Shown: one piece after another, positions 9,281-58,561 of the stretch | Numbering within the stretch: position 1 is the stretch's first letter | How the letters are laid out: the number at the start of each line of letters is the position of its first letter | Assembly: GCF_001719125.1 (NCBI RefSeq) | Contig: NZ_CP017006.1 | Coordinates: forward strand, 992,001-1,056,000 | Reading direction: 5' to 3' | Source of the DNA: Sulfolobus sp. A20 | Lineage (GTDB): Archaea > Thermoproteota > Thermoprotei_A > Sulfolobales > Sulfolobaceae | DNA length: 64,000 nucleotides | Translations under genes and position numbers: made by a program | Notes under the pieces: model-generated | Told to the model about the DNA's origin: nothing | The model's database searches: none | What the model saw: only the letters and a program-made list of their open reading frames with translations

Positions 9281-9513
9281 ATTCTCGTTTACGAAATGAG
9301 GAAAGTCTTGTCTTCAAGATGGCAAAAGTTTTTGAGTTTAAAAGCCGATTCTGGAGATGGACGGGAGGGATCTCCTAACCCTCTCGACTGCCTCTAGAAC
9401 GAGAATCGATGATTGGAACCTATGAACCGCCAAAGGAATCCTAGTCCTTTAGGGCGGGGAGGAAGTCAGAAAAGAGAAGAAAAGTTCTATTCTCGTCCTA
9501 ATAACTAACTAAA
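9281..9513 (+). mobile_element. relic 3' end of a tnpB (IS200/IS605-type) with possible omega-RNA fold
   Basis: Reading in one frame, with two stops, gives a TnpB-like C-terminal tail that ends MNRQRNPSPLGRGGSQK before a TAA near 9510. It finishes with AGGGCGGGGAGGAAGTCAG (9451-9469), which shares its GGAAGTCAG end with the 3' end of the decayed tnpB at 12232-12248. No upstream TnpB domains remain. ATTCTCGTT at 9281-9289 is the exact complement of AACGAGAAT at 9398-9406, and ATTCTCGT recurs at 9489-9496, so alternative stems are possible. I infer a truncated element end whose guide-RNA-like region is still foldable. Confidence 0.5.
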
Positions 9514-11112: not shown

Positions 11113-12261
11113 GCAAGTAGGAGGGCTAATAAGAAGGGTGGGTTAGGAATTAAGGCTACTATTAGCCTTATGATTCCCTTATTCCTCTCCTACTCAGCCT
11201 TGTTGGAAGATGTGAAAAAGGGTTTAAAATATGTCATTAATTGGTTGAGGGAAAGTTAACTTGAGAAGAACTTAATTAAGGAAGTTCATAAGGCAAATTA
11301 TGAATTTTTTGAAGGAAAAGTTTAGCCTTCATCCAAAAGTTAGCCCAAGATTGTTATAGGTATACAATAGCTATATACAAGGGTTGGTTAAAGAATCCTA
11401 AGAAAGGTGAGTGTCCTAGGGTTCATAAAGTATCAGTTTGGTTGACTCCCATAAGTTAGATCTTGAAAATATGGAGTTTTGGATTAAGCAAGTTAGTGAG
11501 TTACCAATACTAGGTTATTTATCATTTTACAAGGATTGGGAAGTGAGAGAGGTTAGTCTTGAGGGATGGTAAGGCATTTTTGAAGGTGTCTCTTTTAAAG
11601 AGTTATAGTGAGTCCTTAGCTAAAGATGGTGTTGAGATTAATATGGCTGATGTTGTGGTTGGTAAAGATGATAAACAGTACGTTAGGATGCTAACTCGTT
11701 TGGATGGTGCTCATCATTATAAGAGTTTAGCTGAAAATTTGCAAATGATAAGGGATGGAAGGAGAATGACAGGATTTTAAACAGAATTAAGGCTTTCCAC
11801 AAGAAGGCTAAGAACATATTGGAGGATTCTGTTAGGAAAGTTGGGAAATGGATTGTTGATATGGCTACGTCATTTAACGTTTCAGCAATTTTTTAGAGGA
11901 TTTAAATAATATGATTAAGAGTGTTAAGAGTTTGTCAATAGAATTTAGGGATAAGCTATATTTGATGTAGTATCGTAGGGTAACAATATTGAATTGAATG
12001 GGAGGCTAAAAAGTATGGTCTTAAAGTTGTTTATGTTATCCCTAATTTTTCCTCTACCATTGTCCTAAATGTGGCAAGGATATGAAAGAGGTCGCTTATA
12101 GGTATTTGCGTTGCTCAAAATGTTGCTATGAGAACGATAGGGACGTAATTGCAACTATGAATTTATATAGTCCTCTGGGCCTCCCAATATATGAGAGGTG
12201 TAAACACGAATTGATGATGGGAGCCCTGCATGGTGGGAAGGAAGTCAGTTCATCTTCCTAA
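11113..12261 (+). pseudogene. tnpB: degenerate tnpB (IS200/IS605 family), frameshifted
   Basis: TnpB segments occur in the right order but in different frames. They include the N-terminal SRRANKKGGLGIKATISL helix region, DWEVREVSL, INMADVVVGKDDKQYV with TRLDGAHHYKSLAENLQ, then KAFHKKAKNILEDSVRKVGKWIV with FLEDLNN. The zinc ribbon [29 protein letters not shown] and a GGKEVSSSS ending close it. At least four frameshifts or stops separate the pieces. The first RuvC catalytic position reads GVEIN where active relatives have GxDIN, an Asp to Glu change. No tnpA is nearby. Intact pieces such as 11559-11780 should not be annotated as separate genes. Confidence 0.85.
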
Positions 12262-12376: not shown

Positions 12377-12574
12377 TTTACTATATTATTAGATCTTTGT
12401 TTTTGTTAAATACAAAATTTTAATCTATATTCTGCTGTAAATACCAATAAATTCTGAGACAAGGAGGTTTTAAATTATCTTCTACTAATCTAATCTTAGC
12501 GTTTTTGTTATATACTTTGAGTTTAGCGTTATAACTTCTGAGCAGATTTGGTCATTCGAAGTCACTTTTAAAAG

Positions 12575-52355: not shown

Positions 52356-53345
52356 ATGGACGAACTACACGTAATTTATGATGAAATATATAAGTCCCAT
52401 TATCCGAGAAGCTTTCATGTAGAGAACCCTGAAAGGTTGACCAAAGCGTTATCTATCTTAAGAGAGTTCAAGGTAAAGTCTGAGAAACCCGTGAAAGTTG
52501 AAGATCCTCAGATTGTGCATTCTGAAGACTATATTAATTTAGTTTCCAAATCGTCTAGCCTAGAAGAGAATTTAGACGTTGACACTTACGTAAATAAAAA
52601 CACTTATGAAGTGGCGTTACATGCTCTTGGTGGATCCTTAAGAGCATTTGAATTAAATGGTTTAGCATTATTAAGACCACCTGGTCATCATGCAGGAATT
52701 AATGGTAGAGCTTTTAACGCCCCTACATTAGGTTTCTGTATCTTTAATAATATAGCTTATCCCGTGAAAAAGCTTAATTTAAGGAAAGTCGTTGTAATTG
52801 ATTTTGACGTACATTATGGCAATGGTACTCAAGAAATCTTTTATGATAATCCAGAGGTGTTGCACATTGACATTCATCAGGATCCTAGGACTCTATATCC
52901 TGGTACTGGCTTCCCAGATATGGTTGGAGAAGGAGAAGCTGAGGGGACTAAAGTTAACTTATTGATACCTCCATTAGGAGGTGATGATCTTTATGAGGAG
53001 TTATTCCCCATAATCGAGTCAATTTTAGATGATTTTGAACCGGTAATTATGGCTATTTCAGCTGGCTTTGATGCATTTAAGGATGATGGATTAGCAAACG
53101 TTAATGCCACTGAACGTACTTTTTATAACTTTGGAAGGTTGAGCAGGAGGTTTAGTAAACGATTTGCAGTACTAGAGGGGGGATATAGTGTAGGTTTGCA
53201 AAGAGGTTTAAAGTCGTTTTTAGAGGGATTTTTGAATATAGAAAAGGAATACCCTATATTTCGTTCTTCTGATGCTGTAAGAACTAGATTTTTGAATTAT
53301 CTGAGTGATGAAAAGAGTATATTGAGAAAATACTGGAGTATCTAA
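52356..53345 (+). CDS. histone deacetylase family protein, second paralogue
   Basis: 329-residue deacetylase: RPPGHHAG (catalytic His pair), VIDFDVHYGNGTQEIFYDN, HIDIHQDPRTLYPGTG, and SAGFDAFKDDGLAN with the second zinc Asp. LEGGYSVGLQRG is near the end. The sequence is closer to AcuC/HDAC-like amidohydrolases such as acetylpolyamine hydrolases than the copy at 31263. ATG directly after an AT-rich promoter. Substrate unknown. Confidence 0.92.
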   Translation: MDELHVIYDEIYKSHYPRSFHVENPERLTKALSILREFKVKSEKPVKVEDPQIVHSEDYINLVSKSSSLEENLDVDTYVNKNTYEVALHALGGSLRAFELNGLALLRPPGHHAGINGRAFNAPTLGFCIFNNIAYPVKKLNLRKVVVIDFDVHYGNGTQEIFYDNPEVLHIDIHQDPRTLYPGTGFPDMVGEGEAEGTKVNLLIPPLGGDDLYEELFPIIESILDDFEPVIMAISAGFDAFKDDGLANVNATERTFYNFGRLSRRFSKRFAVLEGGYSVGLQRGLKSFLEGFLNIEKEYPIFRSSDAVRTRFLNYLSDEKSILRKYWSI

Positions 53346-53436: not shown

Positions 53437-54285
53437 TTAGCATGTATAATAACATTTTAGGGCGATATTAAATGCAGCGTTAAAATCTCTATCAGCTTTG
53501 TATCCGCAAGAGGGACATACGAAAATAGACCCCATTACCTCTCCCTTTTTATATCCACATTTTGAACAAATTTTAGAAGTATTATAAGGATCCACTTTCT
53601 TATATTTTATACCCCTTTTCCTTAATTCAGACTCTAACATTGATTGTAAAGCTCTCAAACCTTTACCTGCCTTAGTCTCAAATGAGTTAAGATCTTCTAG
53701 AGCAACTACGTTTGGCTCTAGATTTTCAATGAAGTTTATAGCTTCATATACTATTTTTTTAGATTTATTTTTGAATTCCTCTAACATTAGAACTCCTTGC
53801 TCGTCTCCTAAATAATTTAGGAAATATTCCATTAGCTTTGGCTCATCAAAAAATCTTACTTTCCATAATTTATTTTCTTTCAAACTTACTATCGTAATCA
53901 AGTGTCTTATCCCAAGATCAATTCCTGCTATTATTGGTTTCTCCCTATATGCTAAGTAAACTTTTATACCATCGTCCCTATATTCCACTACGGCATACAA
54001 AGGCGTTTCATTTATTTCCTTAGATTCAATCAATGCGTTATAGCCCTTTATCTTGAATATATTTTTTCTAATTATATCGAGTTGTAAGGGTCCATCTCTA
54101 GGTATACCTCCGCTCATCATAGAGGATATTATGGGTTTAGGAATATTGGGGGGAGGATTGACTTTCTCTTTAACTCCGCTTTTCCTTAAAGACTCTATAT
54201 ATAATTTATAGTAGATAATGTCTTTATGTATATCTTTCAGCTTTCCATAATCTATAATTTTCGCCTCTATAAGACTCTCTTTCAT
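53437..54285 (-). CDS. compact TnpB-like (IS605 OrfB-related) protein
   Basis: 282 residues. RuvC-like active site intact: Asp123 in IAGIDLGIRH, Glu197 in VALEDLNSF and Asp in KADRDFNAAFNIA (D265/D267), with a zinc ribbon C240-x2-C243...C257-x2-C260. The N-terminal domain (1-118) is much shorter than in normal TnpB of about 400 residues. No tnpA, terminal GGAAGTCAG motif or other IS end is nearby, and the ORF has no frameshift. I infer a domesticated or reduced TnpB-type nuclease. The alternative is an internally deleted, dead copy. Confidence 0.75.
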   Translation of the reverse strand: MKESLIEAKIIDYGKLKDIHKDIIYYKLYIESLRKSGVKEKVNPPPNIPKPIISSMMSGGIPRDGPLQLDIIRKNIFKIKGYNALIESKEINETPLYAVVEYRDDGIKVYLAYREKPIIAGIDLGIRHLITIVSLKENKLWKVRFFDEPKLMEYFLNYLGDEQGVLMLEEFKNKSKKIVYEAINFIENLEPNVVALEDLNSFETKAGKGLRALQSMLESELRKRGIKYKKVDPYNTSKICSKCGYKKGEVMGSIFVCPSCGYKADRDFNAAFNIALKCYYTC

Positions 54286-54362
54286 AAAACTATAATATGA
54301 AAAACTGACTTATGAGTTTATACCCAATAATTAAAAACACTAGCTAAAGATTAATAAATAGT

Positions 54363-55091
54363 TCATAGTTCAACAATATTACCCAACTCTAGTTCCTTGC
54401 TCTCCCGCTCATTTAAGTAGTATTTGACAGTTGAAGGAATAATATAGTTCTCTTCATTTATGTATAGTTTATAGTACTCCTCTGAAACACTGCTCGTTAC
54501 TCTACTTACATTATAATAATACGCAACTAATAAAGTAGGTCCGTTATTCTTATCAAAGTAAATTAATGAAGAATTTAAACTGGTTGCATAATCTTTCAGT
54601 CTTTGAATTGTAGAAAAGTAAGCTTCTAATGGTACTTGATTATCGCTTTCAATTAAGGTTTTGATTTCCTCCAAAATCAAGTAGCTATCAGTATAAGGTC
54701 TATAGGGATCTCTGAAAGCTTTTCTCATAACTGAACCGTTATGTGCGAAGTATAAGTCATAAGGGCCAGCCCTTAGAAAATATGGATGACAATGAGTTAA
54801 CCCTACTAAGAATTTCTTGGATGATCTTCTAGCGTGTACAATTCCGACTATTTCATCTCCTCTTATTGATTCTAGAAATTGTAATCCATTTTCATCTTGA
54901 TAAATAGGTTCTTCAGATCTATAATACCACACTCTCCACTTTTGGCTTAATTTAACAAATATTACATAACCCCATCCATCAGAATGAGATCTATATTTCG
55001 AAAAAACGTCATTATAGCTGGCTTTTAAAAGTCCATCTAAGTATTTCTTCTTTATTTCTCCTTTTGTATGAAATGCAATAAATCTACACAT
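54363..55091 (-). CDS. class II glutamine amidotransferase-like protein
   Basis: 242-residue Ntn-hydrolase with nucleophile Cys2 (MCRFIAF), HSDGWGYVIF, VHARRSSKKFLVGLTHCHPYFL and HNGSVMRKAF, as in YafJ/EgtC-type stand-alone glutamine amidotransferases. Partner synthase unknown. Its start overlaps the metallo-hydrolase stop by 8 bases. Confidence 0.88.
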   Translation of the reverse strand: MCRFIAFHTKGEIKKKYLDGLLKASYNDVFSKYRSHSDGWGYVIFVKLSQKWRVWYYRSEEPIYQDENGLQFLESIRGDEIVGIVHARRSSKKFLVGLTHCHPYFLRAGPYDLYFAHNGSVMRKAFRDPYRPYTDSYLILEEIKTLIESDNQVPLEAYFSTIQRLKDYATSLNSSLIYFDKNNGPTLLVAYYYNVSRVTSSVSEEYYKLYINEENYIIPSTVKYYLNERESKELELGNIVEL

Positions 55092-57955: not shown

Positions 57956-58561
57956 TTAAGCTTTCTTTGATGGGCAAATTATAGAAAAAATACAATATCT
58001 ACACTCCCAATCAAATCTAGGAACTCCTCTCATAGTAATAGTATCCTCAATCAATCTAATAATTGTTGATTCATCTAATGGATCATTAACCTCATATTCA
58101 GTTATTCTATCTGGAGTAATGTAAGTTAATATACCTTTTTTAGCTTCAAATAGCCATAAATAAATTTGTAGCTGCATCTTGTGATGCAAGCGTGGTAACC
58201 CTCTATCACTTCGTGCTGACTTAATTTCTATCACTACTTTTTGGTCGTTAATGTTAACTATTGCATCAGCTCTTCCCTTGATTTTATATGCCTTTCCCGA
58301 TACTTGCAATTCTTTCTCGTTTTCAACTTCAACTTCAGCGTTAAGATTAGTCTTTATGAAACTCTCTAGCCCAGCGTGAACCAGATCTCCTAATAAAGTC
58401 GATGGTTCATAAACTTGTGATATCGCAAGTTCTTTATATTCTTCTTCATATTTAATCTTCTTTGGGCACCTTATTAGATCTGTCACGTATAATGTATTTG
58501 TCTCTTTTGAATGGCTTAAATATTCCTCAAGTTTTTTCTTTAGAAGAAGTTCTGTTATCAA
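57956..58561 (-). CDS. cas4: Cas4-family Fe-S exonuclease, not in a CRISPR locus
   Basis: 201 residues. RecB-like active site: His62 in GDLVHAGLES, Asp99 in GRADAIV, E112-x-K114 in IEIKSA, and QLQIYLW. The 4Fe-4S Cys are C32, C187, C190 and C196. Length fits the isolated Cas4 SSO0001 of Saccharolobus solfataricus. No CRISPR array or other cas gene is in the window. Its start overlaps the glycosyltransferase stop by 4 bases, suggesting a general DNA repair role. Confidence 0.88.
   Translation of the reverse strand: MITELLLKKKLEEYLSHSKETNTLYVTDLIRCPKKIKYEEEYKELAISQVYEPSTLLGDLVHAGLESFIKTNLNAEVEVENEKELQVSGKAYKIKGRADAIVNINDQKVVIEIKSARSDRGLPRLHHKMQLQIYLWLFEAKKGILTYITPDRITEYEVNDPLDESTIIRLIEDTITMRGVPRFDWECRYCIFSIICPSKKA

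What the first reader, a model, noticed from the sequence alone, without database searches (positions are those of the whole stretch)
53437..54285. Compact TnpB-like protein with intact active site and no IS context
Only 282 residues, yet RuvC-like Asp123, Glu197 and the DRDFNAA Asp plus the four zinc Cys are kept, and the frame is clean. It lacks tnpA and transposon ends. The other tnpB copies in this window (11113-12261, 9281-9513) are decayed, so selection on this one suggests a domesticated nuclease.
Basis: partly seen in the sequence, partly recalled or inferred. Interest (0 to 1): 0.6.

Follow-up and report, generated by a model that had tools for sequence, protein, structure and literature searches.

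The report
Domesticated mini-TnpB fixed in Sulfolobaceae
A shrunken relative of the transposon enzyme TnpB, the ancestor of CRISPR-Cas12 scissors, has become a lasting, strongly conserved host gene in a family of hot-acid archaea; its cutting site is intact, but much of what TnpB uses to hold a guide RNA and find its target is missing.

Summary
In detail: window 53437-54285(-) is an intact 282-aa TnpB-like frame with RuvC D123/E197/D267, four zinc cysteines and no insertion-sequence context. It is not a stray solo tnpB. A full-length orthologue is in 30 of 31 Sulfolobaceae genomes, one copy each; the exception is a 79%-complete assembly. None is found at E<=1e-25 in 183 other genomes of the order. 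Triad and zinc ligands are identical in 30 of 30. 27 of 30 keep a tested flanking gene. Genera group vertically. dN/dS is 0.01-0.095 in 15 of 16 estimable pairs. Compared with TnpBs, REC is about halved and most basic charge is gone. In 12 of 21 loci the 3' neighbour lies within 6 bp or overlaps and 3' synonymous sites are not constrained, so a 3' guide RNA is unlikely. Best reading: TnpB exapted once, before the sampled Sulfolobaceae diverged, into a host RuvC-type nuclease that probably works without a cis-encoded guide. Exaptation is near certain; nuclease activity and substrate are inferred. Ten literature searches found no description.

The parts
53437..54285 (-). coding sequence of the compact TnpB-like protein, 282 aa
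53941..54285 (-). residues 1-115: WED-like barrel with a reduced REC insert (helices 16-36 and 50-57)
   Evidence: models; weak fold matches to TnpB/Cas12 (Foldseek not significant)
53917..53919 (-). RuvC-I catalytic Asp123
   Evidence: invariant 30 of 30
53695..53697 (-). RuvC-II catalytic Glu197
   Evidence: invariant 30 of 30
53506..53568 (-). zinc ribbon C240-C243...C257-C260 of the TNB domain
53485..53487 (-). RuvC-III catalytic Asp267 (DRDFNAA)
   Evidence: invariant 30 of 30
54309..54314 (-). place of the TATA-like hexamer; the window copy departs from the strict pattern
   Evidence: pattern at -31 to -27 in 23 of 30 orthologues, not in the window's own copy
54363..55091 (-). conserved upstream neighbour, 242 aa, no Pfam match (resembles class-II glutamine amidotransferases by recall)
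   Evidence: adjacent in 26 of 30 genomes; Pfam none
52356..53345 (+). convergent 3' neighbour, histone-deacetylase-fold protein
   Evidence: Pfam Hist_deacetyl; found in the 1.5-kb 3' flank of 14 of 30 loci

Best explanation
A TnpB of IS200/IS605 type was captured once, before the sampled Sulfolobaceae diverged, and became a fixed host gene. It lost the transposon ends and any adjacent guide-RNA gene, about half of the REC insert, the variable C-terminal tail and most of the positive charge that TnpBs use to hold guide RNA. It kept a WED-like barrel, the RuvC fold with an unchanged D-E-D metal site and the zinc-ribbon TNB domain. Most likely it works as a metal-dependent RuvC-type endonuclease that is brought to single-stranded or branched DNA by shape rather than by a cis-encoded guide, in DNA maintenance of the cell. 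Shown here: homology, single copy, vertical descent, purifying selection, intact triad, lost element context, reduced REC and charge. Inferred: cleavage, absence of any guide, the substrate class, the cellular process.
For: 30 of 31 Sulfolobaceae genomes carry it, one copy each at E<=1e-25. Flanking gene kept in 27 of 30. Genus labels need 9 changes on the tree, the minimum. dN/dS 0.010-0.095 in 15 of 16 estimable pairs, in the range of its neighbours for most pairs. Triad and zinc ligands invariant in 30 of 30. RuvC-TNB part superposes on Cas12f (8j1j_A Z 16.9, rmsd 2.8, 157 aligned) and on RuvC resolvase (4ld0_B Z 13.9, rmsd 3.2, 135 aligned). REC about 50 residues with two helices against 104 residues with four helices in ISDra2 TnpB (PMC10097598, passages). 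Mean net charge +8.9 against +36.8; before RuvC-I +2.7 against +19.9. 3' neighbour within 6 bp or overlapping in 12 of 21 loci. No sign of a constrained RNA in the 3' end, no Rfam RNA there.
Against: No biochemical, expression or genetic data were available. Intact triads are also kept in RNA-guided TnpBs, so the triad does not show loss of guidance. A guide RNA could be encoded elsewhere, or overlap the coding sequence or the convergent gene. The protein is still basic (pI about 9.1), and part of the charge difference follows from its smaller size. Ranges of charge between RuvC-I and RuvC-II touch (-2 to +6 against +5 to +20). Three genomes (G004, G020, G021) keep none of the four tested neighbours, and in G004 no standard start codon precedes the conserved frame. 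One pair (L011-L012) has dN/dS 0.37 at dS 0.04, the highest of the five genes compared for that pair. Neighbour functions give no clear DNA-repair hint.
Confidence: 0.5

Rival explanations
1. Still RNA-guided, with the guide supplied in trans: the host gene keeps TnpB chemistry and takes guides from another locus, for example from omegaRNAs of resident IS elements.
For: Triad, TNB domain and a WED-like barrel are kept. S. islandicus IS605-type tnpBs do make 3' guide RNAs (PMC11043419 section 6). The protein is still basic.
Against: REC is about halved and charge is largely lost where guide RNA and heteroduplex bind. G006 and G018 hold no other TnpB match at E<=1e-3 for this query, yet keep the gene. 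No guide locus beside the gene.
Confidence: 0.22
2. A binding protein, for example a transcription or chromatin factor, in which the triad is kept for structure or metal binding rather than cleavage.
For: Other TnpB relatives (TldR) became RNA-guided repressors (PMC13418256, passages). The zinc ribbon end is the most conserved part (mean majority fraction 0.85 against 0.55 for residues 1-115).
Against: TldRs lost the triad, here it is unchanged in 30 of 30.
Confidence: 0.15
3. An RNA-processing nuclease: the RuvC site acts on a host RNA, as TnpBs are reported to process their own omegaRNA (abstract of PMC10278001 seen in the listing).
For: Same fold and site; absence of a DNA-targeting apparatus.
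Against: No conserved RNA beside the gene; RuvC-fold nucleases with this triad mostly cut DNA (recalled).
Confidence: 0.1
4. An ordinary solo tnpB (IS1341-like) that happens to be intact in this genome.
For: TnpB homology and no tnpA; solo copies are common in S. islandicus.
Against: One copy at E<=1e-25 in each of 30 genomes, same locus in most, vertical descent, no element ends, neighbours abut or overlap.
Confidence: 0.02

Closest known systems
IS200/IS605 TnpB (ISDra2 TnpB; SisTnpB1 and TnpB7 of Sulfolobus islandicus)
   Same: RuvC D-E-D triad, zinc-ribbon TNB domain, WED-like barrel at the N-terminus
   Different: 272-282 aa instead of about 380-430; REC about halved, short tail, low charge; no tnpA, no element ends, single copy and fixed locus
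TldR (TnpB-like nuclease-dead repressors)
   Same: TnpB-derived and domesticated beside host genes (PMC13418256, passages)
   Different: TldRs lost the nuclease site and kept a guide RNA; here the site is intact and no adjacent guide RNA was found
Cas12f and other type V CRISPR effectors
   Same: RuvC-TNB core (8j1j_A Z 16.9; Pfam Cas12f1-like_TNB)
   Different: no repeat array in window 43000-64000; reduced REC; a family-wide core gene
RuvC Holliday-junction resolvase
   Same: RNase H-like fold with an acidic metal site (4ld0_B Z 13.9, rmsd 3.2, 135 aligned)
   Different: carries WED-like and zinc-ribbon parts and groups by sequence with TnpB/Cas12; no RuvC model among the Pfam hits

Membership tests
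IS200/IS605 TnpB RNA-guided nuclease | RuvC D-E-D triad and four-cysteine zinc ribbon | tested here: met
   invariant in 30 of 30 orthologues
IS200/IS605 TnpB RNA-guided nuclease | passes the curated guided_TnpB model cut-off | tested here: not met
   NF040570 78.8 bits against 100
IS200/IS605 TnpB RNA-guided nuclease | full REC domain of four helices between WED strands 1 and 2 | tested here: not met
   about 50 residues with helices 16-36 and 50-57 in the model against residues 13-116 in ISDra2; 112-122 residues before RuvC-I against 179-250 in 26 TnpBs
IS200/IS605 TnpB RNA-guided nuclease | element context: tnpA or element ends, multiple or variable insertion sites | tested here: not met
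IS200/IS605 TnpB RNA-guided nuclease | omegaRNA at the 3' end of the gene | tested here: inconclusive
   no space in 12 of 21 loci, no synonymous constraint, no Rfam hit; an RNA overlapping coding sequence or the convergent gene is not excluded
IS200/IS605 TnpB RNA-guided nuclease | RNA-guided cleavage of DNA | not testable with these tools
   needs biochemistry
TldR | inactivated RuvC site | tested here: not met
   triad intact in 30 of 30
Type V CRISPR effector (Cas12f) | CRISPR array near the gene | tested here: not met
   no direct repeats of 22 nt or more within 120 bp of each other in window 43000-64000; other genomes not checked
RuvC resolvase | RuvC-family sequence model and Holliday-junction resolution | tested here: inconclusive
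   fold match Z 13.9 to 4ld0_B, no RuvC model among the Pfam hits up to E 1; activity not testable here

The most novel reading that the evidence does not exclude
A TnpB/Cas12-superfamily protein has been turned into a guide-free, catalytically active host nuclease specific for DNA structure, part of the core genome of an archaeal family: an evolutionary route out of RNA guidance opposite to that of TldRs, which kept the guide and lost the nuclease.
Probability: 0.4. Interest if true: 0.82.

Novelty: new variant of a known kind. Interest (0 to 1): 0.64.

Why it matters
The exaptations of TnpB that I am aware of (Cas12 effectors, TldR repressors; Fanzor by recall) keep RNA guidance. Here the RuvC chemistry is under strong selection while much of the guide-binding apparatus and any adjacent guide locus seem to be gone, in a family with genetically tractable members such as S. 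islandicus. It makes directly testable whether the Cas12 nuclease core can work as a stand-alone host enzyme, and gives a naturally REC-reduced core of 272-282 residues for structure work. It also warns that a gene that looks like a transposon accessory can be a core host gene.

Tried and rejected
Ordinary IS insertion: rejected. Recent transfer by plasmid or virus: none of 383 matching plasmid records and none of 48 matching phage records covers 80% of the protein; the 37 viral-contig loci match only from residue 105 onwards. TldR: rejected by the intact triad. CRISPR effector: no array in window 43000-64000. Hidden 3' omegaRNA: looked for as reduced synonymous divergence at the 3' end, not found; Rfam shows none there. 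Defence-system membership: 23 PADLOC models match, all named Cas12 variants except one named Csx1. A new fold for the N-terminal part: not claimed. Folded alone it has no Foldseek match at E<=0.001 (best ISDra2 TnpB, E 0.36), but 32 of the 36 VIA rows are TnpB/Cas12 chains, at Z 5.0 or less; and with a profile of the 30 orthologues 3 of 32 TnpB-like frames align from profile position 3-6 onwards. Neighbour function: the scanned neighbours (beta-lactamase fold, PfkB sugar kinase, phosphomethylpyrimidine kinase, glycosyltransferase, peptidase M24, histone-deacetylase fold) give no clear hint of a DNA role, apart from a PD-(D/E)XK/Cas4-like protein at 57956-58561.

Limits. NG86 distances are saturated in 6 of 22 close pairs, and dS is above 2.5 in 4 of the 16 estimable ones. 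The tree against TnpBs used 12 of 30 orthologues, chosen to spread over genera, and 30 of 32 TnpB-like frames: one was dropped for unknown residues, one as a short atypical frame. Both trees carry long-branch warnings. Charges used 31 of the 32 frames, and 4 of 30 truncated frames were set aside for the N-terminal comparison. The TnpB comparators were picked by hand from the hits, not drawn at random. The TATA-like pattern was chosen after seeing the upstream sequences, and its control is a simple base shuffle, so it is suggestive only. ORFs are mechanical (70 aa or more). G005 lacks the gene, but that assembly is 79% complete. An earlier count gave 14 of 15 pairs for dN/dS; the recount is 15 of 16. 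The label GATase in my notes and scripts for the upstream neighbour is recalled; Pfam has no match for it.

Literature. All 10 searches found no paper that describes this gene; the library holds only openly licensed papers. The TnpB classification paper (PMC10691335) and the TldR paper (PMC11702177) are not held. Seen: PMC10640517 part 1 of 2 of the text; PMC11043419 passages and section 6; passages only of PMC6249222, PMC8987985, PMC12558985, PMC12669027, PMC13418256, PMC13337030, PMC8100216 and PMC10097598; PMC5127849 and PMC10278001 only as listed abstracts. PMC11043419 reports 26 TnpB homologues in S. islandicus REY15A; I could not see whether this gene is among them. In the essential-genome paper PMC6249222 the main text does not mention TnpB; its tables were not seen, so essentiality is unknown.

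Full report
What is there. The frame at 53437-54285 on the minus strand is intact and 282 codons long. It carries the RuvC triad D123, E197, D267 and a four-cysteine zinc ribbon. Pfam recognises with confidence only the Cas12f1-like TNB domain (7.4e-22); the NCBIfam TnpB model matches residues 73-276 but below its cut-off (78.8 against 100 bits). The window's genome is one contig of 2,688,317 bases, the length given for Sulfolobus sp. A20 in the abstract of PMC5127849 (search listing). No transposase is among the ten neighbouring proteins scanned, and no matched terminal repeats flank the gene.

It is a family-wide gene. A search of 31 Sulfolobaceae genomes found a full-length orthologue in 30: the window's own and 29 others at 36-71% identity. 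The one genome without it, G005, is 79% complete. A profile search over 214 genomes of the order found the same 30, with one match each, and none in the 183 genomes of other families at E<=1e-25. In the class search at E<=1e-10 (229 genomes, most of them the same) the orthologues score at least 387 bits and the next listed match 88, and the listed TnpB matches begin at profile position 109 or later. In an even draw of 398 genomes of the phylum the 19 hits are all Sulfolobaceae. In G006 and G018 it is the only match at E<=1e-3, so its presence does not depend on resident TnpB elements.

Same locus, vertical descent, purifying selection. The same upstream gene (54363-55091 in the window) lies in the 1.5-kb flank in 26 of 30 genomes, and 27 of 30 keep at least one of four tested neighbours; the exceptions are G004, G020 and G021. 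Among 20 longer loci 18 keep the upstream gene. In a tree of all 30, each genus with two or more rows is one side of a branch, and all genus labels together need 9 changes, the minimum. Against 30 TnpBs, 12 chosen orthologues form one side of a branch with 100/100 support and a length of 1.28. NG86 dN/dS is 0.010-0.095 in 15 of 16 estimable close pairs; the sixteenth, L011-L012, is 0.37 at dS 0.04. For nine pairs compared with up to four neighbours the values are mostly similar or lower; for L011-L012 the focal gene is the highest. The triad and zinc ligands are among 37 positions invariant in all 30. R127-H128, just after D123, is invariant here and variable in the 30 TnpBs, as are G248, G252 and Y280; I read these as marks of a new function, an inference.

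What was lost. In ISDra2 TnpB the WED domain is residues 1-12 and 117-176 and the REC domain, four helices, is residues 13-116; REC and WED read the TAM, and basic residues of RuvC helices 1 and 2 hold the omegaRNA (PMC10097598, passages). In the model of this protein (pLDDT 90.7) strand 3-12 is followed by helices 16-36 and 50-57 and by strands from 63 on, so REC is about halved. The part before the RuvC aspartate is 112-122 residues against 179-250 in 26 TnpBs, with mean net charge +2.7 against +19.9; between RuvC-I and RuvC-II the mean is +2.8 against +11.2, with ranges that touch. The tail after RuvC-III is 14-15 residues, and the whole protein has net charge +6 to +13 against +20 to +54 in 31 TnpB-like frames; part of this follows from size. 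The RuvC-TNB part superposes on Cas12f (8j1j_A, Z 16.9, rmsd 2.8, 157 aligned) and on RuvC resolvase (4ld0_B, Z 13.9, rmsd 3.2, 135 aligned). The N-terminal part folded alone matches weakly: no significant Foldseek hit and best VIA rows 9i8y_A (Z 5.0, rmsd 4.8, 112 aligned) and ISDra2 TnpB 8exa_A (Z 4.9, rmsd 5.1, 112 aligned). That it is a reduced WED/REC rests on these, on strand order and on profile alignments that reach into it in 3 of 32 TnpB-like frames.

Little room for a guide. On the 3' side the next frame lies 0-6 bp away or overlaps in 12 of 21 loci (20 fetched loci and the window). Four-fold sites in close pairs vary more in the last 40 codons (103 of 196) than in the first 40 (37 of 111), so there is no sign of an RNA under selection inside the 3' end. 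Rfam finds only SRP RNA and three tRNAs in the window, all before position 12400. On the 5' side a TATA-like hexamer starts at -31 to -27 in 23 of 30 orthologues against a shuffled mean of 4.25, which fits the leaderless promoters usual in Sulfolobus (recalled); the pattern was chosen after viewing the sequences, and the window's own copy is among the 7 without it. The TAM of S. islandicus IS605 elements, TTTAA, resembles this hexamer, so a relic of an element end is a weaker alternative reading.

How it most likely works. Exaptation is as good as shown. Because the acidic triad is untouched down to 36% identity while other parts changed, metal-dependent cleavage is the likeliest activity. Because REC, basic charge and any adjacent guide locus shrank or vanished, a cis-encoded guide is unlikely, and recognition of single-stranded or branched DNA by the RuvC-TNB core is the simplest remaining mode. 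These last steps are inferred. A trans-encoded guide, a binding-only role and an RNase role remain as rivals.

Relation to known systems. It descends from TnpB but fails three tested features of TnpBs of IS200/IS605 elements (model cut-off, REC, element context), and it fails the defining feature of TldRs, a dead triad (PMC13418256, passages). In the passages seen, a review of recruited mobile elements (PMC8987985) mentions TnpB as a source of Cas12. Ten literature searches found no description of this gene; the library is limited to openly licensed papers.

Noticed in passing
   Followed up: partly
   Followed up: partly
L048, L049, L050 and L060, between the upstream neighbour and the TnpB-like gene: an extra frame of 87-89 aa on the same strand in these four of 20 loci; not characterised
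   Followed up: no
window 57956-58561 (-): PD-(D/E)XK nuclease with a Cas4 (DUF83) match, conserved in the same gene neighbourhood in many of the 20 loci
   Followed up: no
L037 / L061 (G004): the orthologue has no ATG, GTG or TTG in frame before the conserved start region: an odd start, a sequencing error or early decay
   Followed up: no
window 54363-55091 (-): conserved 242-aa neighbour without any Pfam match at E<=1e-4
   Followed up: no
L108, L109, L110 (865-1917), L117: TnpB-like frames with Q in place of the third RuvC aspartate (4 of 30 comparators): possible nuclease-dead TnpBs in Sulfolobales
   Followed up: no
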